Source of the DNA: Zygnema cylindricum | Lineage: Eukaryota > Streptophyta > Zygnematophyceae > Zygnematales > Zygnemataceae | Direction of reading: 5' to 3' | DNA: 64,000 nt | Assembly: GCA_037447655.1 (NCBI GenBank) | Contig: JBBHKE010000394.1 | Location: 32,576-96,575 of the forward strand | Shown here: positions 746 to 45,417 of the stretch, one piece after another | Numbering within the stretch: the first letter of the stretch is position 1 | Layout of the letters: each line of letters opens with the position of its first letter | The notes under the pieces: generated by a model | Seen by the model: only the letters and a program-made list of their open reading frames with translations | Databases searched by the model: none | Told to the model about the DNA's origin: nothing | Position numbers and translations under genes: made by a program

Positions 746-750
746 GGGGG

Positions 751-957: not shown

Positions 958-959
958 GC

Positions 960-2280: not shown

Positions 2281-2350
2281 TTCTCAATCTCTAAATAGCA
2301 TAGGTAGCCATGGCTCTAGCTCCCTCTCTAACCTTCAGTGACTGCCACAA
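1861..2350. repeat. 245-bp tandem duplication across a TE junction
   Basis: Bases 1861-2105 and 2106-2350 are two head-to-tail copies with only a few differences. Each copy contains the end of the A2 repeat followed by the start of the reverse copia0 LTR segment (CATAGGCAGCCATGGCTC). The duplication therefore happened after the two elements became joined. The unit is AT-rich; the short ORFs through it are not supported as genes. Confidence 0.85.
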
Positions 2351-3988: not shown

Positions 3989-6345
3989 TGTCATGCCGCA
4001 TCTTGTCGACCATTATAATTGTTTATATTTAGGTGTAAGGACATGCAACCGCCACACTAATTTATATTTGGGTGTTATTTCGGTTTCGCAGGACTGTACA
4101 TACCCACATTTCGCGTTGGCGTCAACCGTACAATTTTCACATCGTCGTACGCGTTGACTGTACGTATTCGTTTGTGGTCGTAATATGCGCCGATGACAAG
4201 TTTACCGTACAGCTTAGAATTCTCGGATTTTCTGCCGATGGCAACTTCGACCATACGACATATATTCTCCCGGGATTTCCACCGACGGTGAATTCGATTT
4301 TTCAGGTCGACCGTACGACTTATTTTGTCCACAATTTTTGCGATTGTAAAGTAGACCGTACTTGTGGTCCTACAGTACAACCTTTTATTCCTTGGAATGT
4401 CGGATGACTCCCCAAAACCGTTTCTCACATAGAGCTCCTGTCATCATACTTTCCCAGTATATGAAGCCAACTCCATTGAATATGGGCACCCTAGATGGTG
4501 GGCCCATAACCTGTAACTCTGAGACCTCCATAGGACCTCAGAGTAGGCAGCTCACACGAAGCCTCTAGGATAACCCTGACCCCTTTGTGTTTCAGCAAGA
4601 ATAACTGCCACCCTGGCAGACCAAAACTCTGACCACCTTCACCCGTGTAAAGGTAAGACTTCCTTGAGTCTATAGCAAAAAGAATCTCTGAATTTGCTCC
4701 CCTGGGCAGTAAGTTATGAAGGGTCAAAGTTGACCTTTTGTACAGGAGCTCTCTGGGAGAGAGGGTCTAATCAATCAAATTTTTCTAAGTCCTATCTCTC
4801 TCTAAAACTCATCTACTGAAGTACGGCACCAATCATAATAGTGTATCGTACATAAAGGTACATGTGCCGATGTACTTTATGTACGGATATTGTACAACAT
4901 GGCCAAAAAGTCGACACATGTCATTTTTGGATTCGTTCTTGGAATCCCAGGAGATGTCGTAATCCAATGTGATTGTGCCACGTGGCAATTGACGTGACGT
5001 CAACCGCAAACCGCCGAAAACCTATTCCACGATCTCGGCATGCTTCGTGGCCGTCCGATTAAGCCGGATTACAATCGTGACCGTCATAAATACTTCCGCA
5101 GTATTTCTTTCGCTTTCTAAACAAAATGTGCAGTATTCGTTTCGAATGTTTAAAGATCCCGTTAAATTAAACAGACTACGTGTTAACATTTAATTAACTA
5201 TCAAACTATACATCTCCAACTATGATGGCAGACTAAATGGATAAGGCTACAGGCTGAGAGTGGACGGTAGGTACCCGGTTCAAATCCTGGGTCCGTCAAT
5301 TTATATTTTGGTAAATCTACCAAAATCTACAACCTGTAACTCTATCTCTAATCAGCATAGGCAGCCATGGCTCTAGCTCCCTCTTCAACCTTCATTGACT
5401 ACGACAAGTGTGGGAGGTGAAGAGAGAAGTTAGAGGCAGACTGCCTCGGCTTCTTTTCTGCATTTTGCAAAACCTAGAAAACACTAAAATAACCTTTTTA
5501 TTTCTACAAGTGAAAGACAAATCAGCTGTCAGGTCTGACAAAGCGACGTGATTGAACCATTTTAAGTCGTGAACCATTTGGAGGTTCATGCATTCTCATG
5601 TAGATAGGAAGGGTTTTAATCCGTAGGTTATAGATTCTGTAATGTATGGCATGGGAATTTGGCCTCCTATTGGCTGAATTCAAACTAAACGCAAATATTT
5701 ACATAGCACGCTGTACTCTGATTGGCCTGTTTTCACTAGGCGTAGTTTTTGTTACTTAGTTCATTTTAGATCATTTCCTGAACACAATTTTCAAGTGTAG
5801 GAATTATTTATTTTCAGTATTGAGGATTTTCTGCAGCCATCTTTTTATTTTTAAAATTGTCCGGACACCTTAGAGGCAATTTTTTGCCTTTGCGTAAAAC
5901 ATCTAGTTTTCCATTACATTATCACTATCTTGTAAAGCCTTATATATTAATCTATACAGCTTTAACCAAGGCCTACACGGTTTCCCTTCACTTCTCTCGT
6001 CCTTTTGAGTGGATTTCGACCGCGTTTTTATGACACAAACTTCTTTTCTCGGTTGTGGCTAAACTTTAATTAGTGTGGAAGTTGCATGTTGGGATTATTG
6101 ATTTTTTTTTTTCTTGTGATTGTGTATTTTTTCATATTTGGCTTATGTGCACCTTTTGGGTTTGGCTATCTCAAACTTCATAAGTGTCGGGCATATTGTC
6201 ATTTTCAGTTGGTGTTTGTCTTTCTCGGTTGTTTATGTTTTGATTTGTTTTATTAACGTATAAATTCAGATTATCTTTCATAAGATAACTCCTGCAAGGA
6301 ATATAAATAGACCATGGGGCCTAGTGGTCATCCATCGGCTTAGTA
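3989..6345 (+). repeat. A1 terminal repeat of gypsy1
   Basis: Homologous to A2 (21984-22037 plus 28447-29745). About 1.25 kb remains after removing the copia remnant at 4404-5508, whose presence is accompanied by loss of about 96 bp kept in A2 (28813-28908). The first half is rich in GTAC/CGTAC motifs (for example 4092, 4128, 4146, 4160, 4205) and is probably promoter sequence. Unlike A2, it is not followed by a B repeat: after CTTAGTA (6345) the sequence goes straight into the leader. Confidence 0.75.
4404..5508 (-). mobile_element. Reverse copia remnant: LTR plus gag start
   Basis: A minus-strand copia 5' LTR (4512-5508) with 108 bases of adjoining internal DNA: the primer-binding site GGTTATGGGCCCACC and the first gag codons (M-G-P-P-S-R-V-P type). 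The rest of that element is missing, together with about 96 bp of the surrounding A1 repeat, so a deletion removed one side. The LTR shows the usual paired hairpins (minus strand, around 4640-4670) and tRNA-like module (around 5225-5300). Confidence 0.75.
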
Positions 6346-7255
6346 TTCATGCACTTGAAAATTGTCTCTTTTCTTTTCTCGCTTGTTTGTTTTATTTCAA
6401 TTTCAGTTTCTTTGGCTAAAATTAAAAGAAAAAAAAAAATCAAAAATATATATTTATAGATTCATTTCTACAAAAATCTATAACTAGCTTTACATTTTTA
6501 AATACCATTTACTTGTTGGTTGGCGTTTTTATCTTATTGGCCAATTTTCGGCCAACGATATACTACTCTAACTTAAGTATTTGGTTTTTGTTTCCTCCTT
6601 CTCTTTGTTTACATAAGGGGCATCATGGGCTCACCTTATGACGTACTTCACCAAAGAGAGGAGTTAGTGGAGCGGATCCGTTCTTGGGAGCTTTGCAAAA
6701 CTTCGGTTGTAGCAAACAACCGCGGTTCACTTTTAGCAATTACCAGATTACTAAGAGAGTTATGTAAGTATCACGATGCCTTGCGGGTACAGGCGCGTGC
6801 TAAGGTAGTCGGTTGATCGTATAGAGGGATCGTGTTTTGAGTGGATTAGTGTTAATCCACCTTTATTGAGCATTGCATTTGTCCAACTTTCCATGCTTTC
6901 TATCTGGCCTTGATTCACCTTGGCTGAGTTTGCTTTGTCCGGTGTGGGATTTATTCAATAGATCTTGCCGTTAGAGGCATTGGCTAGCTATTTTGTGGAT
7001 TGCGTCGCTTTAGATTTGCAGTTGTGAGTGCTTGGATTGTAAGTTATTTGCCTTAATAGATCTAGCCCTTCGGCCTTATCCCCTTGTTTGCGAGGTAGAA
7101 GGTTTTGGTAATACGGCTTCTTGATAGATCTGGCTATCGAGGCCCTGTTAGAGATTGATTGGCTGATTGGACGAGTGAGTGGTGTGGTTTGGCATTTGAA
7201 GCACCTCGTATAGATAGATTTTGTTATCCGATTGTCATTTGGTTTTATCATTTTT
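6346..7255 (+). other. gypsy1 leader with a possible upstream ORF
   Basis: About 900 bp lie between A1 and the gag ATG. A poly-A stretch sits at 6430. An open stretch 6625-6816 (63 codons) aligns at DNA level with 42090-42263 in the leader of gypsy2, sharing landmarks such as GGTTCACTTTTA and AAGTATYACGATGCCTT. The two predicted peptides are not convincingly similar, so a conserved RNA element is as likely as a small protein. I found no clear match to the 3' end of a tRNA directly after A1. Confidence 0.4.
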
Positions 7256-8700
7256 ATGCCCACCGATTGGGATAATCTCGATTATCCTTTCAAAACCACC
7301 CGATCGTCGGCCCCGTTTAGGCCCACACAATGAGGACCATTAGATTTACCTAGTCTTTTGGACCATCATTTCCCGAATATATCAGGTCAAATTTCTCTTT
7401 CAGTTTGATCTTCTCTCACCTCATTATCTTCCTTATCATCAGTCTCTTCCAAATTTTTCGAGGAAGAATCTGACCACAATTCCGTCGACAGGTCGGATTC
7501 CAATTCAATATCTTTTTGGTTTCCACAAAACACAAATTCATTATTATCCCCAAACATTTGATTATTAGAAATTGGTTCCACATCCGAGGGAGGGGGTCGC
7601 CTTTATTTCTGTTTTGCAGGAATGAAAGACACCATGACTTTATCGCATTTTTGAATGCTATTCGATACCGAAATGCGTGATCTTGCATTTCGGTACCAAG
7701 ATCGGTATGACCTACGGGTCGCTTTCTCTCTTTAAGGCCGTTACTTTCCCGGTTCAACCCTTACTCTTTTTTCCCGCAAGTATGATTCCGTACTTGCTAT
7801 GACAGAGTTTCTCCGGCTTTCGCTTGGAGTCCTGCTATTATAGGAAAACCAGAAATTCCCTACCAACCGGCTATCTCGGAAGTCCTTGATCTCAAAGGCG
7901 ATGTTATTACAACAGCAGTTGAGGAAATACCGCAACAGTTTGCTATAGCCGCACGTGCTGAAATCCAAGCACGACCACCGATGAGGATCCCTATACTGGA
8001 TCCGCTCTTTGTCATGTTTGAAATGTTCGAAGCGGAATATCGTATGCAAAACCCTGTCCAAGTTTGTGAGTTAATGAAATTCGAACGGAAATCACGAGGG
8101 ACCGCCCCTGCCATGCGTGCTCGTATAGAAGCTCTCCGTGAAGCATTGCCGAACTTAATGTCGGATGCTGAAGCTTTCCAAAAATTTGTTGGACAGTTTC
8201 CGAGTCAGTCTAAGAAATTTATTCTGAGTAACCTGACTCAAACGTACAGCTTGAAGTTCACTTTCGAAGAAGCCCCTTAGCATGCCATGGAATACGAAAT
8301 TCAAAATTGTTGGTAGGAAGCCCATGATCGTCTTAAAGCGGTCTCGAAAGAACTGGTTGTTCCTCCATGGAACAATCCTCGTCCTAACAACCGACCTCCT
8401 AAAGTCCTGGCCATGGGAACCCCACGTGTTGCTCTCGGAAACGGATTATGTTTTTTTGATGTGGGAAGACGGGGCATGATGTCGAATGTGTTCAGACAAA
8501 AATGTTACTTGTACACATTTCCAGCAAACCAGACACTACGTCCAACGTTGTCATATAAAGAACCTGGAATTTTCCTATCAGAACCAAATTAAAAATGGTG
8601 GCATTCCCGCTCGATCCGCAAAATTGGTTCAACCGGTTAAAGAACTAGAGAAGGACACCACTCCACCTAAGGTATCTCAAAGAGAGAGAGAGAGCGTTTA
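7256..8700 (+). pseudogene. gypsy1 gag
   Basis: Starts ATGCCCACCGATTGGGATAA, matching the intact gag start of gypsy2 at 42697. Broken frames keep the conserved block around the R-Y-Q-D-R motif (near 7690) and the M-R-I-P-I-L-D-P segment (7981-8280). Two CCHC zinc knuckles follow near 8440-8560: the first is frameshifted and the second survives as C-T-H-F...H-Y-V-Q-R-C-H, with its second Cys changed to Phe. Gag packages the element RNA into virus-like particles in the cytoplasm. At least half a dozen stops or frameshifts make this copy inactive. Confidence 0.75.
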
Positions 8701-8715
8701 GAAATGTAAGAACAA

Positions 8716-9700
8716 ATGGCGGCTATGATAAAAGAACAATGCGCAGCCTTCATGACTCAAATGAAACCACAATTTACTGGCATGGTTCGCACTGTTGTAC
8801 ACATGCCCACGTTGGCAGGTCAAATCTTACGAGATTCCACCATCCAACAACGAGAGGCTACGTTCAACAAATGTTTGACTGATCATAGCCTTGACAATAA
8901 AACTTCAAACACACACATTCCTTTGTCATTCACTAAAGAACCTCCTCCTCCCTTGCCCGAAACCGCTTCAGCCATCGCGGCTGAAGCTCTTAACATAGTG
9001 GATCGAACTATACATGAAGCACACCGCGTGAAAGAACGCTTGTGCATTCTATCCACTATGATTTCTGACTCACCAAAAATCTCCTCGATCTCCTTTACCT
9101 GCGATAGCTGAGCTGCAGTTGCCATGTTACAAGCACTTGAGCTGCACAAAAATCTTGCTGCTATTCAGCTTATTTCTATAGAGGAGCGAAATGCCCTCGA
9201 TCCTCACATCAGTTTTTTGGATAACAGGAAGGCTGCATTGTTGATCAATGGTTTAGCCCCTTCCTTGCTCCTCATGGATACGGGTGCAAAACCTGTGATA
9301 TTGGGCTCTAGCTTTGCATTCAAGCTTGGTCTAACCCCGGACAAGCTTCACACCACTTCTACTCGCTTGTGAACATCAGTGGGTACAACCGAGCCAGTCC
9401 TAGGAATCACTAAGGAACCGCTCGTTTTCAGGTTCCAAAACGGAAAATGGCCACAGACTTTGCTGAGATCTCGGCTCACGCTCTAGTCACTAAATGTAGT
9501 GACTATGAATGCCTACTAGGACAGGACATTATATTTCGTGTAGGGGGTGGAGTTGACAAGCATGATTAGACATTTTTTTATAGGCCGACTAAATTCCCAC
9601 AATGCAAAATGTGCATTCTGCTAATTTCCGCTAGAAAGCCAATGCGTGTGATGGCAAATTCGGCCACATCCATACCTGCATTTTCAGGGAATTTGGTGGG
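8716..9700 (+). pseudogene. gypsy1 gag C-terminus and aspartic protease
   Basis: Two open stretches, 8716-9111 (gag/protease linker) and 9124-9372, contain the H-I-S-F-L-D-N motif followed by the retropepsin active site M-D-T-G-A-K-P near 9277. The downstream flap-like and C-terminal protease region (9373-9700) is shifted in frame but matches gypsy2 at 44800-45130 (G-Q-D-I-I-F-R-V-G-G-G type segment). The enzyme would cleave the Gag-Pol polyprotein. The stop near 9372 and frameshifts indicate inactivity. Confidence 0.75.
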
Positions 9701-10168
9701 GCCGAAATATTTCATTCATTGTCAGCACAAGAAATTATGCCCGATAGTTCTTACTTACCAGAATTTTTCAGTGACCTAGGTTTTCTTATAGATACGAAGG
9801 AATTTGACCGAATCTATAACCAAACCTTGTCAATTCAACTTTCTCCTGTCTCTGCTACAATCCCAATCCCTACGGATTCTACTGGGTTTCTTCCCATTAA
9901 TTGGAATGTGGTCCAATTGAAACCTTATCTAAATGGATTGGTGATTTAGGACCTTTTCGCTCGAATAGGCAATTCCATTCTTGCATGTTTGCGAAATGGA
10001 TTATTAATCCAATTTTATTATTCGGTTGAGATTGATCCTTTAGCACAGAAAACACAAATACAACATTGTGATCTGTTACATTCTGAATACCTGCATTTGT
10101 TACCAAAATTTGCATACGAGCATATATATAGTGCTCTCCCACAAGACATATGGATTGTGGGCAACCAT

Positions 10169-11103
10169 TGTTGAAAAAGGTATTTTGTAGTCTCTCTTGT
10201 GACCTTACTGCAACTCTCATACTTGTCGTAGACACTGATGACCTGCTGGCTCCTTGTAGTAGCTAAAGAGACAGGCATATCACTAATATTGTTTTTACAA
10301 AACATAGTCTGCCAGTTGTGGGAATTAATCTAAGGACCTCTTGATGAGCGCCGTACAGAATAGCCATGCGCCTTATCTAATTGGTCTTAGAAGAGCGATG
10401 TACGTATATGACGCAATTGTTATTTAAGAATATACGGCACCGGATATTCCCTTTAAAACAAATTACTCGACATACCTGTTCGTACAAAATCAGACCGCAC
10501 GAAATATCCGAATCTACATGTAATTTCGACGGACGAAATCAAATGTTCGGATTTGATCAAACGGCTCACAGTGGAGCCGGAATGCCGAAAAAGAAGTTTG
10601 GCAGTTTGCGGACCAAATGTCGGTGGATGACACGTGGCAACATATGGTTGGACAGCGGATATTATGGGAGGAGCAACTACGACTCCGGAACTGCCACGCG
10701 TCAGCGGACCGGCCATGCCGTACTATGGCCGTACAAGAAGTACACCGGTACTTGTACCTTCTTGTACTTTACACTCATATGATTGGTCGAGTATCTTAGT
10801 AATAGGTTTAGAGAGGTACCTTAGGACTTAGAATATTTTTGGGTTTTCAGCCTCTCTCCCAGAGTGCCTAGTATTTATGGACCAACTTTGGTTAGCCATA
10901 ACTTAATGCTCAGGTGAGCAAATTCAGTGATTCTTTTTGCTCCGGACTCAAGGGAGTCCACGCTACACAAGGGTGTAGTCGATCAAAGATTTTGCGTCCC
11001 AGGGTGGGACTTATTCATTTTCAAAGTCAAAAGTGCATATATTATCCTAGAGGCTTCACATAAGCTAGACATTTTGTGTACCAATGTAGGTCACAGAATT
11101 ACA
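10169..11103 (+). repeat. copia1 5' LTR
   Basis: Begins TGTTGAAAAAGGTATTTTG and ends CACAGAATTACA; 935 bp. The 3' copy (15497-16441) is 945 bp with scattered differences, so the insertion is not recent. U3 carries clustered GTAC motifs and an ACACGTGGCA G-box-like site (10629). A TATA-like TATTTATGG sits near 10870, and the paired hairpins at 10944-10978 lie downstream of it. Confidence 0.9.
10944..10978 (+). promoter_or_regulatory. Paired stem-loops in the R/U5 region of the copia LTR
   Basis: Two perfect 6-bp stems with AAGG tetraloops stand 3 nt apart: GGACTC-AAGG-GAGTCC (10944-10959) and CTACAC-AAGG-GTGTAG (10963-10978). Related LTRs in this window keep the stems while changing their bases, for example CTTCAC/GTGAAG in copia3 and AACTC/GAGTT plus TTCAC/GTGAA in copia0. 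They lie between the TATA-like box and the primer-binding site, so they would be in the 5' end of the transcript. Role unknown. Confidence 0.65.
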
Positions 11104-11118
11104 GGTTATGGGCCCACC
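11104..11118 (+). other. copia1 primer-binding site, half-tRNA type (tRNA-iMet anticodon arm)
   Basis: GGTTATGGGCCCACC directly follows the 5' LTR. It is the exact complement of GGTGGGCCCATAACC, the anticodon-arm region of plant initiator tRNA-Met as I know it. It does not match the usual TGG-starting site complementary to the tRNA 3' end. This is the half-tRNA priming arrangement known from Drosophila copia, yeast Ty5 and Volvox Osser. The gag ATG (11108) lies inside it. Confidence 0.8.
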
Positions 11119-12260
11119 CTCTAGGGTGCCTATTTTTAATGGAACTGGGTTCATTTATTGGGAAACCATGATAAGGGGTGCACTAGTTGAAAAACGGCTA
11201 TGGGGCATTGTGAGTGGTCATGTGTGTCGGCCATTCGCAAAATTGGGAGTTCCACCAGGGTTTGGAGGATCTCGGTTCATAACAGGATCTGCGGGGGCAG
11301 AGGCGGAAGAGGATGTTGGAGAGAGCATCGTGTCGGACATAGAGAAGGAGAACGGGAAGGAGAAACTTACACCGATGCCTACTGGATCGGTTTTGGCATC
11401 AGGTATTCAAAAAAAATCGAGGCTAATGATAGTGAAATCTGGGATTTCAACAATACCGTTGCGACTCATTTTATTCTCGGGCGTCTCACCCAGGCAGTGG
11501 CTACACCTCATCTTCATGTGGACAGGGCGGACAAGTTATGGGAGGCACTTGTCAACATTTACAAGAGTGGTACAATTCAGCAGTAGAAGGTGGCAGATCA
11601 GAAGGTACAGACTTATGGGTACAAAGGGGGAAAGATGTTAGATTTTTGTAATGACTTGGCCGGGTTATTTATGGAGTTAGAGAGTGCAGGGAAAAGGGAG
11701 ACTGAGAAATAGAAGGTGAATACTTTGTTCATGAAACTCCCACATGATTATGAAAACATTGTTAACAGGGTTCAGGACTTGCCAGATCTTCGATGGATCT
11801 GGAACTCTGTTGTGCGAATGATTTTGGTTCGGGAAAACACAATTGAGATTCGTAGAGGAGGAAAGATTGTTGAGGCATTGGCTGTTGGAACCAATTGGGG
11901 AGATAAGGATTCCAAAAAAGCTTATGGAAACTTTGGTGGAAGGGGAAGAGGAAATCAATCGGAAGGATTTGAATCGAGGCCTCCGAAGGGGCTTTGTCAC
12001 TTTTGTAAGAAGCCGGGACATTACATGGCAGAGTGTACTAAGCTGTCACAGTTGAGATTGAAGGAGAAACAGGTCGGAAAACCAGTCGCAAAGAAAAAGA
12101 AGGCATTTGTGGCAACAGAAGTCATCGGAGAGGACTTCGATGAGGACGATGGAGAACTTCTCCTCAACGAGGAGCTGGAGGTGAAAGGTGAGCCGGAGAT
12201 TCCAAGGAGGAAAAAGTGTGCTTTCGGTGGAGTAAGAGAAGCTCCTAAAGAAGGATGGAT
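11108..12260 (+). pseudogene. copia1 gag (UBN2-type with CCHC knuckle)
   Basis: The ATG at 11108 lies inside the primer-binding site and starts M-G-P-P-S-R-V-P, the same start as in copia2 and copia3. The N-terminal part shifts frame near 11400; the continuation (W-D-F-N-N-T-V-A-T-H-F-I-L) and the UBN2-like segment with two stops follow to 11715. The stretch 11716-12250 includes a zinc knuckle C-H-F-C-K-K-P-G-H-Y-M-A-E-C (about 11995-12036) and an acidic C-terminal linker. It encodes the capsid/nucleocapsid protein; stops at 11584 and 11710 break this copy. Confidence 0.85.
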
Positions 12261-13309
12261 TATTGATTCGAAGCCTCTATGCATAAGTGTAGAGAAAACC
12301 ATTGTTTACCAAAATGAGAAAGATCCCTACTCTAGAGATAGAGTATGGGGATGGGAGAATAGTCACCACTAATTTAGTGGGATTTGTGGATCTGAGAGTC
12401 TTGGTTGATGGAAAGGCATCCATAGCCACTTTCTCTGATGTTCTTTTTATCCCCGAGTTGAACAAGAATCTTATCTCTACGTCGGTCTTAGATGATAAGG
12501 GTTTTGAGACTAGTACTTATAAAGGAGTCTTTGTTGCTAGGTATGAGAATGAAGTGTACTTCAAAGCTGAAAAGGGTAGCCAAGGAATGTTTAGGCTGAA
12601 TTTGAGTAATGGAAAGACGGGAGTTTACTATGATGGTGTAAGTGATTTGATGATGTGGCATAAAAGATTGGGACATGAGCATCTAGATAGATTAAAAGAT
12701 ATGAAGAAAATGGGTGTAGTTGAGGGCATACATTTTGGAGATGATGAGACTTTGGATGATTGTAGTGGGTGTGCTCAAGGAAAAGCTCATAGGTTGCCTT
12801 TTCCAAAAGCCGCAACATATAAGGGTGAAAAGGTTTTAGATTTGGTTCACACTGACATATGGGGACTGGCTAAAGTGCCATCAGTTAGAGGGAAAAGATT
12901 TATGCTTGCTATCACTAATGATTGGTCTAGATACTCTAGAGTATATTTCTTGAAAAACAAATCTGAGGCATCGGCTTATTTTAAGGAATATAAATCATGG
13001 AGTGAAAAGCTTCATGAGACACTTATAAAGAGAGTAAAAAGTGATAATGGGGGGGAATTCACTTCTAATGAGTTTGAGGATAACTTGAAAGAGGAAGGGG
13101 TTCAACACCAAAAGACTGTCCTAAAGAACCCGGAACAAAATGGTGTAGCCGAGAGACGAAATCGGACATTAAGTGAGAGTGCCTGTAGTATGTTGACGGA
13201 TAAAAAGATAAGGAAAAGTTTTTGGGCAGAAGCTATGAATTGTGCTAACTATCTCAAAAATAGAGTTCTTACCTCACTTGTAAAAGGTCAAACACCTTAT
13301 GAAAGATGA
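12250..13309 (+). pseudogene. copia1 protease and integrase
   Basis: The protease motif W-I-I-D-S is visible at 12258, but a base loss immediately after it shifts the frame, so the active site is broken. The open stretch 12302-13309 then carries the rest of protease and integrase. The integrase zinc-binding H-H-C-C pattern lies in W-H-K-R-L-G-H...C-S-G-C (12657-12779). Catalytic D-D-E residues are seen in H-T-D-I-W-G, S-D-N-G-G-E-F and N-G-V-A-E-R. Integrase inserts the cDNA into chromosomes. The domain ends at a stop (13307) just after Y-E-R. Confidence 0.85.
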
Positions 13310-13315
13310 ACCGGG

Positions 13316-14520
13316 AGAAAACCTAACATATCACACTTAAAGGTGTTTGGAAGTCAAGTGTTTAGTTTAAACACAGAAAAATCTGATTGGAAGTTAGATG
13401 TTAGAGGAAAGCCGCGATACTTACTTGGGTATGATGAGAACGTAAAAGGGTATAGAGTTTATGATCTCGGTAGAGAAGACATAATTCTAGTAAAACACTT
13501 GGTAGTTATGGATGAAGGAAAATCCATAGATCCCTTTAAGTATACTAAACCGGTCAGAATTAGAATTGAATCCCAAAGTGAGTTAGATGCAGATTCTACT
13601 AACCGAACTCCGGTTCAGTCTGATCGTGCAGAGGATGAGAAAAATCTGACCGAAATTGACCCTCTTTTGGAGTCACATCTTCCAATTCAAACCGAGGAAG
13701 AAAACGAGGAAATAAAGGAAACGGACGATGAAGGACCGGAATTGGACTCCACGAATAGAGGAGAAGGTAAAGTTGTTCGGAGGAACCCGAGATTACCCTC
13801 GATTCCCGGGTCAGAATTTGAAGGAGGAAGGAGAAGCAGCAAGAGACTTCAAGAGAGACAAGTGAAGAACAAGGTAACTAAGCTATCACATTTGAGCGAA
13901 CCCCAGACTTACTCAGAAGCAGTTAATAGTCCGGAAGGTGGTAAATGGGTGACATTTATTAATAATGAGATGGCTTCCATTATGGAAGCGAACACTTGGG
14001 AGTTGGTGGACTCTCCTCCGGATAGATAACCAATAGGGTGCAAGTGGGTATTTAAGTTAAAGCTCAATCCAGATAACACTATCGAGCGATACAAAGCCAG
14101 ATTAGTGGCAAAGGGGTTCACACAGAAGGAGGAAATCGACTATGAGGAGACTTTTGCTCTAGTTGTTAGATTCCCCTCCGTCCGGATTCTACTTAGTCTT
14201 GCGGCAGCGGAAGACATGGTAGTGCACCAGATGGACATCAAATCCGCTTTCTTACACGGAGAATTAGAAGAAGAGATCTTCATGCGACAACCGGAAGGAT
14301 TTGTGGAGAAAGGAGAAGAAAGCAAGGTGTGCAGATAGATAAAGTCCCTTTATGGACTAAAGCAAGCTCCACACCAATGTAATAAAAAGTTGGACGAGTT
14401 TTTGACAAGTTTGGGATATATCTGAATCAGTTCAGATCATTCCATCTACTTTTTTGAGGATGAGGAAGGTATAATTTTCATTGCCATATATGTTGATGAT
14501 TTGCTTGTTTTGAGTAATCA
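13316..14520 (+). pseudogene. copia1 integrase tail, linker and reverse transcriptase N-half
   Basis: 13343-14029 encodes the integrase C-terminal part (G-Y-D-E-N-V-K-G-Y-R-V-Y-D-L) and the acidic linker to RT, ending at an in-frame TAA within N-T-W-E-L-V-D. The RT continues at 14030-14338 with the conserved [11 protein letters not shown] segment and the H-Q-M-D-I-K-S-A-F-L-H-G block. It then has stops at 14336 and 14422. The polymerase active site Y-V-D-D is intact at about 14487-14500. Confidence 0.85.
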
Positions 14521-15480
14521 ATGGTTAAAATTAATAAATTGAAAAAGGATCTAAAGAGTAGATTTGAAATGAAAGACTTGGGGGAGGCAAAGTTCATTTT
14601 GGGAATTCAAATGGAGAGGGATAGAGAAAACAAAACAATTAGACTAACTCAAAAAGAAGCAATCGGGAAAATGCTTGAAAAATTTCAAATGGAAAAAGCA
14701 AATAGTTGTACGACTCTAATGGACTTAAAGAAGGGAAATGAGGGGAGCTCAGAGGAGGGAGTCTTAATCTTGGATAATGAGCTAGGACTTGAGGAAAGCA
14801 AGTTCATGCAAACTATTCCGTACAGACAGGTTGTCGGTAGTTTGATCTACTTTATGAACTGTACTCGTCCTGATATAGCTGCAGTTGTGGGAGTATTAAG
14901 TAGGAGTCTGAATGATCCTAGGAAGAAAGATTGGGAAGCAGCCAAAAGGGTCATGCGGTATTTGGTAGGAACAAGAGATTTGTGGTTGCATCTGGGTGGG
15001 GATAACACTGACATCACTACTTGGAGTGATGCCAGTTATGGGGATGCTCCGATGAGGAGGTGTACTTCTGGATATGTGTTGTATGTTGGGAATGGGGCTT
15101 GTTGTTGGAGCAGTAAGCAACAAAAGGTGATTGCTCAGTCCACCATGGAGGTTGAGTATATGGCCTCTTGTTCTGCTGTGAAATAATTAATCTGGGTGAA
15201 ATGTTTGCTTCAAGAATTGGGATATATAAAGAGCGGAGTGCAAAAAATATTTTGTGACAATCAAGCTGCGATTGCAATTTCAGCAAACCCTAAGCATCAC
15301 TTTAAAGCAAAGCATATGGATATTCGTTTAAGCTTTGTTAAAGAGAAGGTTGAGAATAAAATAATTAGTTTGGAATATAGACCGGATGGAGAGATGGTAG
15401 CAGATATGATGACTAAGCCAATTCCTTCTCCCAAATTAAAATTTTGTAGGGAGAAGTGTGGACTAAAAGAAAAGATAGAC
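14521..15480 (+). pseudogene. copia1 RT C-half and RNase H
   Basis: 14521-15186 covers the end of RT (K-D-L-G-E-A-K-F-I-L-G-I-Q), the N-C-T-R-P-D-I-A segment and the first part of RNase H (W-S-D-A-S-Y-G-D and S-T-M-E-V-E-Y-M). A TAA at 15184 separates the last part (15196-15480), which carries F-C-D-N-Q-A-A-I-A and H-H-F-K-A-K-H. The polypurine tract and 3' LTR follow directly. Apart from the stop the domain looks well preserved. Confidence 0.85.
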
Positions 15481-15496
15481 TACAAAATAAGGGGAG

Positions 15497-16441
15497 TGTT
15501 GAAAAAGGTATTTTGTAGTCTCTCTTGTGACCTTACTGCAGCCCTCATATTTGTCATAGTCACTGACGACCTGCAGGCAGCCATGGAAGCCTCTAGCAGC
15601 TAAACAGACAGGCAGATCACTAATATTGTTTTTACAAAACATGGTCTGCCAGTTGTGGGAATTGATCGAAAGACCTCTGGATGACCGCCGTACAGAAAAG
15701 CCATGCGCCTTATCCAATAGGTTTTAGAAGTGCGATGCATGTATATGACGCAATTGTTATTTAAGAAAATACGGCACCGGATATTCCCTTTAAAACAAAT
15801 TACGCGACATACCGGTTCGCACGAAATTAGACCGCACAAAATATCCCAATCTACATGTAATTTTGACAGACAAAATCAAACGTTCGGATCTGATCGAACA
15901 GCTCACAGAGGAGCCGGAATGCCGAAATAGAAGTTTGGCGTTTTGCAGACTAGATGTCGGTGGATGACACGTGGCAACATATGGTTGGACAGGGATATTA
16001 CGGGAGGAGCAACTACAGCTCCGAAACTGACACGCGTCAACGGACCGGCCATGCCGTACTATGGCCGTACAAAAAGTACACCGGTACTTGTACCTTCTTG
16101 TACTTTACAGTTATATGATTGGTCGAGTATCTTAGTAATAGGTTTAGAGAGGTAGCTTAGGGCTTAGAATATTTTTGGGTTTTTTAGCCTCTCTCCCAGA
16201 GTGCACCTGTATTTATGGACCAACTTTGGTCAGCCATAACTTAATGCTTAGATGAGAAAATTCAGTGATTCTTTTTGCTGCGGACTCATGGGAGTCCACG
16301 CTACACACGAGTGTAGTTGGTTAGGGATTTTGCGTCCCAAGGTATGACTTATTCATTGTCAAAGTCAAAAGTGTATATACTATCCTAGAGGCTTCACATA
16401 AGCTGGACATTCCGTGTACTAGTGGAGGTCACAGAATTACA
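15497..16441 (+). repeat. copia1 3' LTR
   Basis: Starts TGTTGAAAAAGG after the polypurine tract and ends GAATTACA, followed by the TSD ACCAT. Its hairpins near 16284-16318 differ from the 5' LTR copy only in the loops (ATGG and ACGA), while both stems stay perfect. Confidence 0.9.
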
Positions 16442-17150
16442 ACCATAACTTATTGGAGATTGGTTCAATTGATCTTGTTTTTGGCGGATGGGAGTGCCAA
16501 GGAATGTCTCGGGCTGCGAAAGGTCTCAGATTTGCCAATCCCCGCAGCAAATTATTTTTTGAATTGGTTTGCATCCTGCATTTTCTACAGACTTTAGATC
16601 ATCCTATGCGGTATATTTTGGAAAATATCGCAGCCTATAATGATCAAAAACCTACGGTTTTGGTTGATTATCAACGGATCGTACAATTAATTGGTCCGCC
16701 TCTTATTATTCACGTGGCTCGTCATGGCTCACTAGCACACTAGGTTCGCTCCAAATGGACGAACCAGATTGATATTAGTAAACTCCGTGAGGCCAACTTG
16801 TTAGTTCGTCCTCCTCCTACAAACATTCATGTTGCCCTTCTTCCTTTCCATAAGGTGCAACCTTGCAATAAAAAGGACTGTCCCCCTAATTTTAGTGTCA
16901 ATGTCCCGCGTCATCCTCTCAAGGTGCTTCCTACTTTAGTTTCTTAACCACATTCACATGCATTCTCTCATGATGGTCCTGGCATGCTCCGAAACATTCA
17001 TACTGGTGAGCTCGAAGAGCCTACCTCTATGGAACGAGAACACCTCATGCATTTCATTCTTGGCATAACAACCGCTACTGGTCTTACAGAACATCAAAGA
17101 TGCACTTTATTAGTTGTAGTCATGGACCCTCACTCTTTGTCTTTTGTTTT

Positions 17151-17560
17151 AGGTCTTAGGTTTGCAGCTGGTCGCCACTCTCACACACATCCGTCTCAAC
17201 CAGCAGGAGGGGGGAATGCATCAAGAAAATCTTTCTGTCCCACTCTGTTAGGGATCACATTTCAATTTTTCCTCTTTCCTTCTCCAATTCCACTAGTCTC
17301 GGAGATCTCTATCTACGATTTCCTCAACCCTAGCCATATGTCTTGGTCTTTTCCCGCATACACGGTTGTCCACTCTACAAGTCCCATGCATATTCCACCC
17401 ACTCCTCATTGGAGCGCTGCTTTTCCAACAGGCAAATGGAATCATTCAGTTTATTGCCTTAAATAGACACCTGTAGCTTACGAGTTAGGTCAAACGCTTA
17501 TTGCACATGAGTAGTTGTCCTTTGCACAAGCCATGGAAGCTATGTTAAGCAAAATTCTCG
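17151..17560 (+). other. gypsy1 linker between methyltransferase and RT
   Basis: Partly open sequence (to 17466) rich in Pro, Ser and His with no domain I recognise, followed by a stretch with stops. It probably encoded a flexible linker of the polyprotein. The last part (A-M-E-A-M-L near 17530) leads into RT. Confidence 0.4.
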
Positions 17561-18553
17561 ATGCTCCTAAATGGAAATTTGCAAATTTGCCACCAATCTA
17601 ACAAAGACCGAACAAGAGTTACTAAATGTTGTAGTTTTACAAAATGTCGATGCCTTTGCCTTTTCTTTGAAGGATTTGGGTCGTCACACCGCTTATAAGA
17701 TGTCAGTAGATCTCGAAGACGATCGCCTGATATTTAAACTAAAACATCGTTTATCAGAAACTGAATGTGAAATGGTAGACACACGATGTGCTGAACTAGA
17801 GGAAGCTGGGCTAATCAATGGGTCGGACTCCACATTTGCAGCTCCCACTGTCATGCCTCGGAAAAAGGATTCCGAGGGTAATTTTACTGAACGTCGAATA
17901 TGTGGTGACTATCGTGAACTAAATGCTATAATAGTTCAAGATCGTCATCCCATGCCTCTTGCCGAATAAATATTTGATCACGCAGGGGGAGCAAAGTATT
18001 ATAGTATCCTTGACTTCCGTCAAGGATTCAATCAAATTTAGATAGAGGAAAAAGACCGGCATAAAATTGCCTTTTGGGGCAGCGACGGGCGATGGGAATA
18101 GGCCGTAATGCCATTCGGACTGAAAAATGCTCCGGCTGTATTTCAAAAAGTCACGGACTCCGTTCTTCGAGGTTAAAAGTTTGCTAGATGTTACATCGAT
18201 GACCTCATCATTGCCTCGGCTACTCTCGAAGAACACGTAGCTCACATAGAAAGGGTATTGACTGAATTAAAAAAGGTCGGATCAAAATGTCATCCTGCAA
18301 AATGCACCTTTCGAGCCGAAAGAGTGCCTTACCTCGGCTATTTTATCTCAGCTGAGGGGATCACTCCTCTCGAAGCAAAGGTAGAGCCAATCATTAAATT
18401 GCTTGCTCCCACGGACCTCATAAGTCTGCGAGTTTTTCTTAGACTTGCTAATTATTATCGCAGGTTTGTATCTAATTTTAGCACCATCGCATCTCTATTA
18501 AACGACCTTCTCAAGAAAGAAGTGGCGTTTATATGGGGTCTCGATCAGATTTC
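17560..18553 (+). pseudogene. gypsy1 reverse transcriptase
   Basis: Ty3/gypsy-type RT. The open part 17571-17969 contains R-I-C-G-D-Y-R-E-L-N and D-R-H-P-M-P-L. Beyond a stop come the S-I-L-D-F-R-Q-G-F-N-Q segment, M-P-F-G-L-K-N-A-P-A and the intact active site Y-I-D-D at 18192-18203. 18258-18566 adds the thumb region with Y-L-G-Y-F-I-S and R-R-F-V. The sequence is cut by a solo LTR at 18554 and resumes at 19738. Stops near 17967, 18040, 18100 and 18174 inactivate it. It copies genomic RNA into cDNA in the particle. Confidence 0.9.
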
Positions 18554-19732
18554 TGTTGATATTTGAGTATTTTCTAGGTCTGTATTAGGATAGAAAAAGA
18601 GCTGAGGCGGTCTGCCTCTAACTCCCCTATCTAAGCCCCCACACTTGTTTTGTCACTGAAGGCTGGATAGGGAGCTAGAGCAATGGCTGCCTAGGCTCTC
18701 TAAAGAAAACAAGGGGGTGAATTAGGTAGACTTACCAAAAGTTAGTTGACGGACCCAGGAGTTGATCCTGGTACCTGCCGTCCGTCACTCCGCATTAGCC
18801 GATAGCTCTAGCCGTTAAGTCTAGGACAGATATTACGATATATAGGGTTTGATAAATATATATATAGTCATATGTAGATTAATCCGTTTAACCGCTAATA
18901 GATACTTAGTACAAAGATACAGTTTGATTTAGTACGAAGTACAGTATGTGGACAGAACGGATACCGCGCATTTGTTTCGATAGCGAAACAAATACCGAGC
19001 GTCGAATTTCAGCGGCTAGGATTATAGTCGGTTTGATCGGACGGCCACGATAGGCGCCGCGATCACGGAAAAGGCATTTTTGGCGTTTTACTGTCTTTGC
19101 CACGTCACATGACACGTGGCGTGATAACATTCGACTACGGGAATTCTGGATATTACTAGAACTAATCCTGATTTGACACGTGTCGACATTTTGGCCATGT
19201 CGTACAATGACCATACATAAAGTACACCGCCACCTGTACTTTTCTGTACGACATAGTAATTTGATTGGTGCCGTACTTCAGTAGATAGAGTTTTAGAGAG
19301 GGAATAGGACTTAGAAAATTTTGGGTAGGCAGCTGCCTCTCCCAGAGAGCACTCTATATAAATGGCAAACTTTGGCCAGCCATAACTATCAATTTACTTG
19401 ACCATTTTCAGTGATTCTTTTTGCTGCGGACTCAAGGGAGTCCGAGCTACACAAGGGTGTAGTCGGTCAGAGTTTTTGTCTGCCAGGGTGGCTGCATTTA
19501 TAAGGGAAAGTCAAAGTGGGTGAATGTGTCCAAATCTCATTTTCTAACTTTGCATTCTGTGGTGGAACTGTGCACACAGAAAGTGTTATTTCACAAAGGT
19601 GAATCTATATTAGGATTGTGACTGTCAATGGGTCAATCATTTGGGTTTATATTAACTTGGAGTCGGCACTATCTAGATTAGATTCTTTTGGATCTGCATA
19701 CTCTGAGGGCCAATGGAGGTCTCATAGTTTCA
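18554..19732 (+). repeat. Solo copia LTR in gypsy1 RT
   Basis: 1179 bp, TGTTGATATTTGAG...CATAGTTTCA, flanked by the perfect duplication ATTTC (18549-18553 and 19733-19737). A lone LTR with a TSD indicates loss of the internal part by LTR-LTR recombination. It is closest to the LTR at 60978-62150. A TATA box TATATAAA lies at 19355, with paired hairpins near 19430-19463. Confidence 0.9.
18748..18824 (-). promoter_or_regulatory. tRNA-like module (box A/box B-like) antisense in the LTR
   Basis: On the minus strand a TAGACTTAACGG (box A-like, near 18823-18812) is followed about 45-50 nt later by a perfect 5-bp T-arm-like stem-loop CCAGG-7nt-CCTGG (18755-18771) with a box B-like core. Flanking GACGGAC (18748-18754) and GTCCGTC (18780-18786) pair perfectly. 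The module recurs at the same place in the other copia LTRs here (for example 5225-5300, 47227-47305, 52550-52610, 61160-61240). It resembles a tRNA-derived internal Pol III promoter; activity is untested. Confidence 0.45.
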
Positions 19733-19737
19733 ATTTC

Positions 19738-20360
19738 CGCATTTCAAAAATTAAAAACCGCCTTATCGAGTGGTCCAATTCTTTGTCCTCCCAATCACAA
19801 ACTCCCTTTTTGTATCCAAACAGATTTTGGGAAACTCGGAATCGCTGCCATCTTGACACAAAGAGAGTTGAGCAGAGAGGAATACGTAGTTGCTTACGCG
19901 GGCACAAGCAATAACACGGCTGAATCAAATTATAGTAGTTACAAAAAAGAATGTCTAGCCGCGGTTTAAGGAGTCGTTCACTTCCGCCATTATTTGTACG
20001 GAAATCTTTTCACACTCTTAATTAACCATCAACCCTTACATTCGCTGATGACGAACGATAAGCTTTCCAGGAAGCTAGCCTAATGGGCTTTAATCTTACA
20101 AGAATATGGCGTTGAAATAATCCACCGACCTGGTCTGCTTAGTCTTAACGTAGCCAAATTTTCCCGAAATCCTTTGCCACGAACGACGGATAACGGAGTT
20201 CGACAAGATTTCGATGACAACAATGTTCCTCTCATGTCAATGGATTCTTATCTTACTTACTGCCTGGCCTCTATTCCGAACCCCTGTCTCGCCATAGATC
20301 ATTGGCGTGATGGGCCTCTCATTATTTTCCTATCCTCCTAGACCTTCAGGTCCGGCACTA
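19738..20360 (+). pseudogene. gypsy1 RT connection and RNase H
   Basis: Resumes the RT frame after the solo LTR with F-Q-K-L-K-T-A-L and continues into RNase H: Q-T-D-F-G-K-L-G-I-A-A-I-L, Y-K-K-E-C-L-A-A-V and F-R-H-Y-L-Y-G, in the usual gypsy order. It degrades the RNA strand of the RNA:DNA hybrid. Stops at 19967, 20081 and 20339 break the frame. Confidence 0.8.
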
Positions 20361-20380
20361 CTTGTGATGAAGAAGACAGA

Positions 20381-21535
20381 GTGAAAAAGAGGGCCAAAGG
20401 TTACCTTTGGCTCGGGGGATCTTTAGTTCGGTTGTTGGCAGACGGAAGCCATAGGCACGTTCCACGGCCTACCGAGCGTCTTTCTCTCATTGAGCAGATT
20501 CACACCGAGCTTGGTCACTACGGTACCAAGCGAACGTTAAGTCTAGTTCAGGCACGGTATTGGTGGTCAGGAATGCAAGCTGATGTCGCTGCTATTCTGC
20601 ACAAGTGTGCCACCTGTGACCGTCTCCGAACTTCTTTCTCTAACCGGCAGACTACGCTTCAACCTCTACCTATTAGGGGTTTGTTCTATCGATGGTCGGT
20701 CGATTTGGCCGGACCTTTTCCTATCTCACGTAGGGGTAAACAATATATCATGATTATGATTGAAAATTTCAGTAAGTGGGTAGAAGTCGTAGCCCTGCCT
20801 CACAAGACAGCTAAGTTAACCACCGCAGCTTTTAAGGAACATGTCCTTATGAGATACGGTGCCCCAGCCGAGGTCCTTATGGATCAAGGTACAAAATTCC
20901 GGGGAGAATTTCAAAAGATGCTTGATGAGGCTCTCATCGATCATCGTCGCACTAGTCGGGATCACCCCCAAGCCGATGGCTTGGTTGAACGGGCAGTCGA
21001 AACATTTAAGCGTACCTTGCGTAAGCATTGCTAAGAGAAACACATTTCGGTTTGGGACGAGTCCCTCGGCTACATTACCATGAGATATCGCATGTTAGTT
21101 TAGGCTAGTCAGGCTAATTTCAACCCGTATTATGTTTTATTTGGGCGACAACCGTTGTTCATTCGCAATATTCTGAAAGTTGCAAGCTTTCCACTTCCGC
21201 TTATGTCTAACACTATCTTTTTGGAAGAACTCACTCGTCGTGCTTTGCTTTTTGCCCGTGAAATGCCCATGGCTTTTGATAACCTGCAGATTGCTCAACA
21301 TCGAGAAACACTTCGGTTTGCCACCACTCGAAGAGGCAGTTATAGGCGGCAACAGAAGCCCTATCAGGTGGGAGACTCTATTTATTTTCGCAAGCAAACT
21401 TTTGACACTTTGGACACAAATGTTTCCGCACACATCCTACGGATAATCAAGGTGGATTCAAACGGAATGTTGGGATTAGAAGGAGCGGACACACGGACTT
21501 TTCGAAAGCACTCCAAGAATTGTGCTCCATGTTAG
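20381..21535 (+). pseudogene. gypsy1 integrase (DDE type)
   Basis: 20381-21034 is open and carries the zinc-binding H-H-C-C motif (H-T-E-L-G-H-Y...C-A-T-C), the first catalytic Asp in W-S-V-D-L-A-G-P (about 20700), the second in L-M-D-Q-G-T (about 20880) and the Glu in A-D-G-L-V-E-R (about 20980). After stops at 21032 and 21101 the C-terminal part continues (21155-21535) with Y-Q-V-G-D-S-I-Y-F, the usual post-core G-D motif, and the segment N-G-M-L-G-L-E. No chromodomain follows. A PHD finger takes that position instead. Confidence 0.85.
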
Positions 21536-21589
21536 TTACCATATTTGTCGCAGGAATATGGATCCTATGCGGATAAAGATTACGAGGGT

Positions 21590-21772
21590 GACAGCATGTA
21601 CCTTTTGTCATTGATCGGACGGGGAAACTACTATGTTACTTTGTGATCATTCCAATCAAGGGTTTCACATGGAGTGTTTGGTGCCACCATTAATGGCAGT
21701 TTCGGATGGTCATTGATTTTGCCACAGATGTCGCGAGCTTCCGCTCGTGTTGGCCAGCACCTTTGCCGGCTA
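21590..21772 (+). pseudogene. PHD finger domain at the C-terminus of gypsy1 pol
   Basis: In a frame shifted from integrase, 21597-21731 gives the C4-H-C3 pattern: C-T-F-C, then M-L-L-C-D-H-S (fourth Cys changed to Ser), then G-F-H-M-E-C-L, then x-F-C-H-R-C. The hydrophobic L-L-C-D and G-F-H spacing and the P-P-L after the seventh ligand are typical PHD features. Stops replace the residue before the last Cys pair (the usual Trp position) and one earlier residue. The ORF ends with TAA just before the poly-G tract. PHD fingers read histone H3 tails, so the domain may have guided integration or the linked methyltransferase. Gypsy2 keeps a remnant, G-F-Y-M-E-C-L, near 45300. Confidence 0.8.
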
Positions 21773-21778
21773 AAGAGC

Positions 21779-21790
21779 TAGGGGGGGGGG
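21779..21790 (+). other. Poly-G/polypurine tract of gypsy1
   Basis: TAAAGAGCTA followed by G(10) directly before B1. Gypsy2 (45410-45426) and copy 0 (735-750) have the same GCTAA-GAGCT-G(n) arrangement. A purine run at this site would be the plus-strand primer in a conventional element. Confidence 0.7.
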
Positions 21791-21981
21791 AATAAACCAA
21801 CCTAACCATAACTAGCTAAGTCGTTGAACTTTTTTTTTTTCACCTTGCTTGTTGTTATATTTATTTATTTTTCTCTTTCATGTCTTATTTCATTCACAAT
21901 ATATTTTCATCGTTTGGGTTAAAGTGGAACACAGCTGATGATATTGCATGCATCTTCACGTTATTTGACACATGCATGATA
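21791..21981 (+). repeat. B1 terminal repeat of gypsy1
   Basis: 191 bp, AATAAACCAACCTAACC...CATGCATGATA. Matches B2 (29746-29936) with moderate divergence. It is followed by GA (GC in the relatives) and the start of A2. Confidence 0.8.
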
Positions 21982-22037
21982 GAAGTCATGCCGCATCTCG
22001 TCGGCCAATATAATTGTTTGTATTTAGATGTTAGGAC

Positions 22038-23073
22038 TGTTGAAAATAATAAAATTCTAAAGTATTTTCTAGGTTTAATAGGTTAGTATAAAAGAAAAGA
22101 AAAAGAACGGACAGCCTGCCTCCACCTCTTCTCTCTAGCCCCCATACTTCTTGTAGTCACTGAAGGATAGAGAGGGTAGTTGATCCATGGGTGCCTTAGT
22201 TCAACAGGCAGTTATTTTTAGTAAGCTACTAAAAATATAAATGACGAACCCGGGATTTGATCGTAGTACCTTCGGATCGTCAAGTTAGCCGATAGCGGTC
22301 AGCTTTATCTTATAAGACTAGGCCTAATGCTAAATGCTATAGTATGTGATAGATATATATATCTATAATAAGGAACAAATTCATTTAACTTAAAATGTAT
22401 ACGGCTTGCATAGATACAGTTTTATTAAAGTACGAAGTGCGACAGTTTTTCAAAACGAATACCACACATTTTGTTTTGACAGGGAATCAAATATTGCGCA
22501 AGTATTTATAACGGCTAAGATTGCGTCTCGTTGCAAATCCAACGGCTCGAATCATCGCCGAAATCCCGCATTGGTCGTTTTGTCGTTTTGTGACGTGGCA
22601 TAACCTGGAACCACGTGGAGAGATGACATTCGGTCATAGGAATTCCGACAAATGTACGGACGAGTGAAAAGCAAACACGCGTCTTAATAGCCTTGTCGTA
22701 CATAGGCCGTACAAAAGGTACACCAGCAGTAGTACATTTTTGGTACGGTACAGTAATCTGATTGGTCCGTACTTCAACAGATAGAAGTTATTAGAGGGAA
22801 TCAGGACTTAGAAAATTTTGGTAGGTAGTCACCTCTCTCTTTGAGAGTTTCTACAAATTGTCATTTTTTATTGCCCCATAACTTATCGGCTGGTTAGCCG
22901 TTTTCAGTGATTCTTTTTGCTACAAACTTAAGGGAGTCCAGGCTGCATAGGGGTGGAGTCAAATTGTCATTTTGCCTTGCTGGATAGCAGTGGTTGTGGC
23001 TTGAAGTGGGTTAGTTAAATACTATCTAGAGGCTTTCTGTATTGTGTGGTCCAATGGAGGACACAGAATTGCA
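22038..23073 (+). repeat. copia2 5' LTR
   Basis: 1036 bp, TGTTGAAAATAAT...CAGAATTGCA. The first hairpin near 22927 is eroded (AACTTAAGGGAGTCC), while the 3' LTR copy keeps AGACTC/GAGTCT. The tRNA-like module is near 22245-22320. Confidence 0.9.
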
Positions 23074-23077
23074 CGTT

Positions 23078-25460: not shown

Positions 25461-25467
25461 TGACCCC

Positions 25468-27400: not shown

Positions 27401-27404
27401 GGAG

Positions 27405-45411: not shown

Positions 45412-45417
45412 AGAGCT

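What the first reader, a model, noticed from the sequence alone, without database searches (positions are those of the whole stretch)
9719..17150. A gypsy-type retrotransposon carrying its own DNA methyltransferase
Seen: C5-methyltransferase motifs I (D-L-F-A-R-I-G, 9950), II (V-E-I-D-P, 10025), IV (G-G-W-E-C-Q-G-M-S, 16483), VI (E-N-I, 16621), a DNMT3-style A-H-x-V-R...W-T-N segment (16735) and a motif IX/X-like block (17026-17140). They are collinear between protease and RT, and the frame is continuous across the copia1 insertion. Known: retrotransposon-encoded DNMTs were reported in dinoflagellates and charophyte algae (de Mendoza and colleagues, 2018, from memory). Inference: this is a plant-lineage counterpart that could methylate its own cDNA or insertion sites. 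I do not know of this domain order (protease-DNMT-RT-RNase H-integrase-PHD) being described.
Basis: partly seen in the sequence, partly recalled or inferred. Interest (0 to 1): 0.95.

Follow-up and report, generated by a model that had tools for sequence, protein, structure and literature searches.

The report
Jumping gene with own DNA methylase
The window holds a dead copy of a large, recently active family of gypsy retrotransposons in a green-plant-lineage genome whose members carry their own DNMT3-like DNA methyltransferase and have an unusual repeat layout that suggests they insert from a DNA circle.

Summary
Confirmed and extended. The window element (3989-29936) is a gypsy-type retrotransposon with a DNMT3-type domain between protease and RT. 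This copy is dead: three stops, a changed motif I, frame changes, a copia insertion. The family is not. In the window's own genome (353 Mb) the motif IV-VI piece has 149 further scored matches at E<1e-38 (cap reached); sampled copies have open frames, and the domain is under purifying selection (median dN/dS 0.21-0.26). Nearest solved structures: DNMT3A/B. Two groups: alpha (PCQ motif IV, conserved UAG before the DNMT) and beta, with the window (ECQ).

Repeats are A-coding-B-A-B, as in print for KnitGypsy-Dnmt3 of the alga Klebsormidium. I add TG...CA ends, 4-bp target duplications (exact in 2 of 5 copies checked), a B.A joint with a 2-nt spacer (182 exact genome matches; 100 of 100 listed spaced by 2 nt) and A|B joints that vary at the PBS/PPT borders. 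This fits integrase opening a 2-LTR circle at an internal att site, as foamy virus integrase does in vitro. Self-methylation of cDNA remains inference. New variant of a known kind; the host is a streptophyte, species not known.

The parts
3989..6345 (+). Repeat A1 of the window element, starting TG; interrupted by an inserted LTR-like repeat at about 4410-5506
   Evidence: matches A2 at 90.9% (375 bp) and 91.5% (844 columns)
4410..5506 (.). Inserted LTR-like repeat (several copies in the window)
6336..6348 (+). PBS-like stretch after A1 (CGGCTTAGTATTC; TGGCTTAGCATTC in the young relative); no tRNA match was tested
7786..9111 (+). Gag region, in broken open pieces
   Evidence: open pieces; DNA similar to the gag-protease part of the young relative at 66% over 7607-9685
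9217..9369 (+). Aspartic protease (Asp_protease_2, E 2.3e-5)
9719..10168 (+). DNMT, first part: motif I at 9950, motif II after it; in-frame stop at 9947
10169..16441 (+). Inserted copia element (LTRs 10169-11103 and 15497-16441, 89.6% identical), target duplication ACCAT at 10164-10168 and 16442-16446
16442..17250 (+). DNMT, second part: motif IV (ECQ) about 16480, VI about 16621, VIII about 16735, IX/X 17026-17140; stops at 16741 and 16945
17571..18566 (+). Reverse transcriptase in broken pieces; YIDD motif; RVT_1 E 3.1e-10 on 18177-18566
18567..19732 (.). Inserted LTR-like repeat, 84.6% identical to 60978-62150
19736..20080 (+). RNase H (RT_RNaseH_2 E 6.8e-20), one in-frame stop
20342..21034 (+). 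Integrase: zinc-binding H2C2 and rve core
21480..21713 (+). C-terminal part with PHD finger (21615-21713, E 4.8e-5, just under the cut-off)
21775..21790 (+). Polypurine tract before B1
21791..21981 (+). Repeat B1
   Evidence: 178 of 196 columns identical to B2 (stretches compared include a few flanking bases)
21971..21997 (+). B1.A2 joint: mutated palindromic att-like site, 2-nt spacer GA
21984..29745 (+). Repeat A2, interrupted by a copia element at 22033-28441
29746..29936 (+). Repeat B2, ending CA; flanks CAAG (3985-3988) and TAAG (29937-29940)
39756..47068 (+). Young non-autonomous relative: A1, gag-protease, end of pol, B1, A2, B2; no RT, integrase or DNMT match; GCTA on both sides
1..2350 (+). 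Part of a third relative: protease, end of pol, polypurine tract at 738, B, B.A joint at 947-973, start of A; truncated

Best explanation
The window element is a dead member of a large, recently active family of Ty3/gypsy retrotransposons in a streptophyte genome that carry a DNMT3-type cytosine methyltransferase inside Pol. The domain was most likely captured once, before the alpha and beta groups parted, and has been kept by selection (presence and selection shown, about 0.97; single capture inferred). Reverse transcription gives an ordinary linear cDNA whose LTR is B.A (PBS-like stretch after A, polypurine tract before B: seen). The cDNA ends join into a 2-LTR circle; the DDE integrase cuts the palindromic site inside one B.A unit and inserts, leaving A-coding-B.A-B with TG...CA ends and 4-bp duplications (inferred from the joints, about 0.65). 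In alpha the DNMT-RT part is made by reading through a conserved UAG (inferred, about 0.7). The DNMT most likely methylates the double-stranded cDNA before integration, so that the new copy arrives already methylated; the PHD finger may guide insertion (inferred, about 0.4).
For: Profile and structure relatives: DNA_methylase in window, alpha L007 and beta L012, DNMT3A best in PDB for all three (E 0.0021, 1.4e-14, 1.2e-10). Copy number: 123 scored matches of 782 candidates, 150 of 1060 with the window piece. DNMT and RT groups agree in 41 of 41 rows having both; 7 of 48 had no RT in the stretch. Of 149 RT places 81 have a listed DNMT upstream, median gap 838 nt, quartiles 837-853; of the other 68, 5 were opened and 5 of 5 carry DNMT sequence. 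Median dN/dS 0.26 and 0.21. Repeats. Joint: 182 exact matches, control 0, 100 of 100 listed with a 2-nt spacer. Alpha stop in 19 of 27 loci where the junction was found, 18 UAG and 1 UAA, all followed by CAATTCCC. Foamy virus integrase cuts the palindromic LTR-LTR joint in vitro (PMC1180852 section 8).
Against: No transcript, methylation or enzyme data. KnitGypsy-Dnmt3 showed no activity in yeast, called inconclusive by its authors (PMC5890265, passage). Beta has ECQ in place of PCQ. DNMT is less constrained than RT (RT medians 0.16 and 0.05). The young relative moved without coding for DNMT, so the domain is not needed in cis. Flanks match exactly in 2 of 5 copies checked (young, C1344), differ by one base in 2 (window, C449), and do not match in alpha C1374. 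In the young relative B1 and B2 differ at 7 of 190 bases but A1 and A2 at 6 of 1258 (Fisher p 5e-4), not expected if both come from one round of copying; six of the seven lie close together. The young joint's palindrome (16 of 18 matching) is not rare by itself: 25 18-mers of the window reach that score and one exceeds it.
Confidence: 0.6

Rival explanations
1. The beta domain, the window's group, is no longer a methyltransferase: with ECQ in place of PCQ it only binds DNA or cofactor, and selection keeps that role, for example packing or protecting cDNA.
For: 9 of 9 open beta domains read ECQGMS while 14 of 14 open alpha domains read PCQGY; Pro before the catalytic Cys is nearly invariant in this family (recalled).
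Against: The catalytic Cys, ENV/ENI and the RVRSKWTN segment are kept in the open beta domains, ENV/ENI in 9 of 9 and RVRSKWTN in 8 of 9, and dN/dS is low.
Confidence: 0.25
2. The DNMT acts on chromatin at or around inserted copies, or blocks rival elements, rather than on the element's own cDNA; the PHD finger brings it to its target.
For: PHD finger in the window element and in an alpha copy.
Against: The domain sits in Pol beside RT at a fixed distance, which places it with the cDNA.
Confidence: 0.2
3. The A-coding-B-A-B layout comes from recombination or tandem insertion of ordinary LTR elements, not from a circle opened at an internal site.
For: An alpha copy has an extra B and no matching flanks; C1407 has a shorter A2.
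Against: The same layout in the window element, the young relative, C1344, C449 and alpha C1374, exact TSDs around whole A-coding-B-A-B units in two, and 182 joints, the 100 listed all with a 2-nt spacer.
Confidence: 0.1
4. The motifs are chance similarity or a one-off capture in this copy.
For: Motif I and IX/X pieces of the window score nothing alone.
Against: Large family, fixed spacing to RT, purifying selection.
Confidence: 0.01

Closest known systems
KnitGypsy-Dnmt3 of Klebsormidium nitens (de Mendoza et al. 2018, PMC5890265; abstract, outline, passages and sections 11 and 15 read)
   Same: Dnmt3-type domain inside the Pol frame of a gypsy element, no introns, repeats like those of DIRS, purifying selection, streptophyte host
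   Different: Here many more copies, two groups, ECQ motif IV in beta, UAG before the DNMT in alpha, PHD finger, and joints read at base level; no sequence of KnitGypsy was held, so kinship is untested
SymbioDIRS-Dnmt3 of Symbiodinium (PMC5890265, passages)
   Same: Dnmt3-type domain in Pol, split direct repeats; two of these methylate CG in yeast
   Different: Tyrosine recombinase instead of a DDE integrase; dinoflagellate host
DIRS-like retrotransposons
   Same: Split direct repeats; Dam-like methyltransferases in several (PMC5890265, passage)
   Different: Tyrosine recombinase and no target duplication (recalled); here rve integrase and 4-bp duplications
Foamy virus integrase on 2-LTR circles (PMC1180852; abstract and section 8 read)
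   Same: Cuts a palindromic LTR-LTR joint with two bases between CA and TG
   Different: In foamy virus the joint arises when the ends meet; here it is inherited inside the LTR

Membership tests
KnitGypsy-Dnmt3-type elements | Dnmt3-type domain in the Pol frame of a gypsy element | tested here: met
   one open frame with zinc knuckle, protease, DNMT, RT in L012; DNMT and RT in one frame in L007; PDB DNMT3A best
KnitGypsy-Dnmt3-type elements | A-coding-B-A-B repeats | tested here: met
   window element, young relative, C1344, C449, alpha C1374; C1407 right side only, alpha C544 not reached
KnitGypsy-Dnmt3-type elements | purifying selection on the DNMT | tested here: met
   median dN/dS 0.26 (39 of 91 alpha pairs) and 0.21 (9 of 36 beta pairs); their value is Ka/Ks below 0.2
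KnitGypsy-Dnmt3-type elements | common descent with the K. nitens sequences | not testable with these tools
   no K. nitens sequence held
DNMT3 methyltransferases | motif order I-IV-VI-VIII-X, not rearranged as in DRM | tested here: met
   open domains; alignment to DNMT3A
DNMT3 methyltransferases | Pro-Cys in motif IV | tested here: inconclusive
   met in 14 of 14 open alpha domains, not met in 9 of 9 open beta domains
DNMT3 methyltransferases | methylates DNA | not testable with these tools
   no enzyme assay
DIRS retrotransposons | tyrosine recombinase | tested here: not met
   rve integrase at 20342-21034; no Phage_integrase hit in the pieces scanned
Ty3/gypsy LTR retrotransposons | protease, RT, RNase H, integrase in this order | tested here: met
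Ty3/gypsy LTR retrotransposons | the same whole LTR at both ends | tested here: not met
   split repeats instead

The most novel reading that the evidence does not exclude
A lineage of gypsy elements that integrate from a 2-LTR circle through an inherited palindromic att site inside the LTR, and methylate that circle with their own DNMT3 before insertion. Methyltransferases would then be a recurrent accessory of elements with DIRS-like repeats (DIRS with Dam, SymbioDIRS, KnitGypsy, this family) because these pass through a free DNA circle; the beta group would use a DNMT active site with Glu in place of the motif IV Pro.
Probability: 0.35. Interest if true: 0.92.

Novelty: new variant of a known kind. 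Interest (0 to 1): 0.78.

Why it matters
It gives a further streptophyte genome with DNMT-bearing gypsy elements, with many copies, measurable selection and recent insertions, so the role of a transposon-encoded methyltransferase becomes testable. The joint anatomy offers a concrete mechanism for DIRS-like repeats in an element with a DDE integrase, and suggests a link between circular cDNA and the repeated capture of methyltransferases.

Tried and rejected
Protein search with the motif IV-VI piece: nothing. Motif I and IX/X pieces alone against PDB, Pfam and a Dcm profile: nothing significant. The piece 16744-16944 likewise. The single IMG/VR relative is a phage Dcm. A copia integrase search did not name the host. 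Host: L008 encodes a chromomethylase-like exon (best PDB chains E 3.4e-29 to 3.7e-29, among them 4fsx; that 4fsx is maize ZMET2 is recalled); chromomethylases first appear in charophytes (PMC6453930, passage), so the host is a streptophyte. Ovate gave 0 matches but rang in no control, so this proves nothing; one dynein heavy-chain locus was found. I lean to a streptophyte alga, unproven. The GRAS family search and the alpha joint pattern did not complete. Trees with K. nitens or host DNMT3: no sequences. Flanks of alpha C544 missed the repeats. Literature: searches answered; in what I read of them (listings and passages) no second streptophyte family with this anatomy appeared; PMC6338049 (passages) says transposon methylases are absent from land plants, which this window cannot test.
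Full report
OBSERVATION. The piece 16423-16740 passes the Pfam DNA_methylase cut-off and its best solved relatives are DNMT3A, E 0.0021. Motif I-II and IV patterns each occur once in 127,996 codons and never in 60 shuffles, but the motif I and IX/X pieces give no significant hit alone. Order: protease, DNMT, RT, RNase H, integrase, PHD. The two DNMT halves are in phase across copia1 by arithmetic (6273 + 5 = 6278, 2 mod 3; positions). The copy has stops at 9947, 16741 and 16945, a frame change between protease and DNMT and DLFARIG in motif I.

THE FAMILY. The window lies in an assembly of 352.8 Mb and 2689 contigs. DNA_methylase gives 123 scored matches of 782 candidates, 85 of 123 without a stop inside by my count of the table. 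The window piece gives 150 scored of 1060 candidates, itself included, the other 149 being 64-84% identical. Both lists are capped. I opened 48 places: the 8 best and 40 chosen from places without a stop inside the match, so the sample leans to good copies. 47 of 48 belong to the family; L008 is a host chromomethylase. In 20 loci the window piece is 65-84% identical (beta), in 27 loci 32-40% (alpha). A tree of 23 open domains and one phage Dcm sets alpha apart with 100/100 support on a branch of 1.15; it does not show that beta is a clade, and its root is for drawing only. RT lies downstream on the same strand in 41 of 48 rows (47 loci and the window); 7 alpha loci have none in the stretch; RT and DNMT groups agree in 41 of 41. 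Of 149 RT places 81 have a listed DNMT 0-2.5 kb upstream, median 838 nt, quartiles 837-853, against 155 DNMT places typed. Of the other 68, I opened 5: 3 carry a nearly whole and 2 a C-terminal part of the DNMT. So the domain looks like a fixed part of the family.

SELECTION. On the 23 open domains (14 alpha, 9 beta) Nei-Gojobori dN/dS has median 0.26 in alpha (39 of 91 pairs with dS between 0.02 and 1; largest 0.60) and 0.21 in beta (9 of 36; largest 0.41). RT of the same set of loci: 0.16 (10 loci, 29 pairs) and 0.05 (11 loci, 11 pairs). The DNMT is constrained, less than RT. Choosing open frames leaves out dead copies. Motif IV reads PCQGY in 14 of 14 open alpha and ECQGMS in 9 of 9 open beta domains; over the open pieces with xCQG(M/Y)S the counts are 25 PCQGYS and 20 ECQGMS, nothing else (one alpha locus reads PCQGYC and is not in that count).

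READTHROUGH. In alpha the protease frame ends at UAG (18) or UAA (1) in the 19 of 27 loci where the junction was found by pattern; CAATTCCC follows in all 19. Twelve further rows of that output are a different downstream match. The context holds across subgroups 56-59% identical to L007 in the DNMT. It resembles the TMV-type readthrough context (recalled). Beta L012 has no stop there.

REPEATS. The window element has A1 3989-6345, B1 21791-21981, A2 21984-29745 and B2 29746-29936, with inserted elements. The young relative at 39756-47068 has the same layout, A 1252 of 1258 identical, GCTA on both sides. C1344: A identical over 931 bp, B 99.6%, TTGG on both sides. C449: A 80%, B 95.7%, flanks TCAT and GCAT. 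Window element: CAAG and TAAG. Alpha C1374: A 97.8%, B 99.5%, flanks do not match, an extra B. C1407: right side only, shorter A2. Alpha C544: my stretches missed the repeats. The joint CATGCACGACA-N(0-12)-TGTCATGCCG occurs at 182 places, control 0, and 100 of the 100 listed have exactly 2 nt between; this counts non-autonomous relatives too. A|B joints: LTR ends joined with one base less (young), 10 nt of the PBS-like stretch kept (window element, C449), GGG between (C1344), one extra C (alpha C1374). Polypurine tract before B and PBS-like stretch after A (in beta; none recognised in alpha) mean that reverse transcription makes LTR = B.A; the integrated form is what a 2-LTR circle gives when opened at an internal B.A site. 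Foamy virus integrase cuts its palindromic LTR-LTR joint leaving a 2-nt overhang (PMC1180852 section 8). Spacer and joints are shown; circle and cutting are inferred. Against it: the excess of B differences in the young relative and the unmatched alpha flanks; and the palindrome score alone is not rare.

NON-AUTONOMOUS RELATIVES. The young element has no DNMT, RT or integrase match, yet moved recently; it must use proteins in trans, so the DNMT is not needed in cis.

KNOWN. De Mendoza et al. 2018 describe KnitGypsy-Dnmt3 with gypsy composition, DIRS-like repeats and purifying selection; in yeast SymbioDIRS-Dnmt3 was active, KnitGypsy-Dnmt3 inconclusive (PMC5890265; abstract, passages, sections 11 and 15). 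A 2025 paper mentions retrotransposon DNMT3s in streptophytes and dinoflagellates, naming Copia and DIRS (PMC12344493, passages). The words PHD, readthrough, target site and circular do not occur in the main text of PMC5890265. In my eight answered literature searches I saw no report of the joint anatomy, PHD or UAG; four further searches failed. Verdict: new variant of a known kind, with a mechanism that can be tested.

Noticed in passing
57360-59579, minus strand: Eukaryotic LSU rRNA pieces (model positions 1456-2620) with an inserted LTR-like repeat, so an rDNA fragment invaded by a retroelement.
   Followed up: partly
39756-47068: Young non-autonomous relative with A repeats 99.5% identical; B repeats differ more than A (7 of 190 against 6 of 1258).
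   Followed up: partly
1859-2350: Tandem repeat of about 246 bp, two copies 96.8% identical.
   Followed up: no
34463-35356 and 54008-54224: Short tandem-repeat tracts of similar sequence.
   Followed up: no
alpha loci such as L007:1090-1092: Conserved UAG between protease and DNMT, always followed by CAATTCCC in the 19 junctions found.
   Followed up: yes
G000:C1490:41316-43021: The four dynein heavy-chain matches in the assembly lie in one locus; few or no motile flagella, or an incomplete assembly.
   Followed up: no
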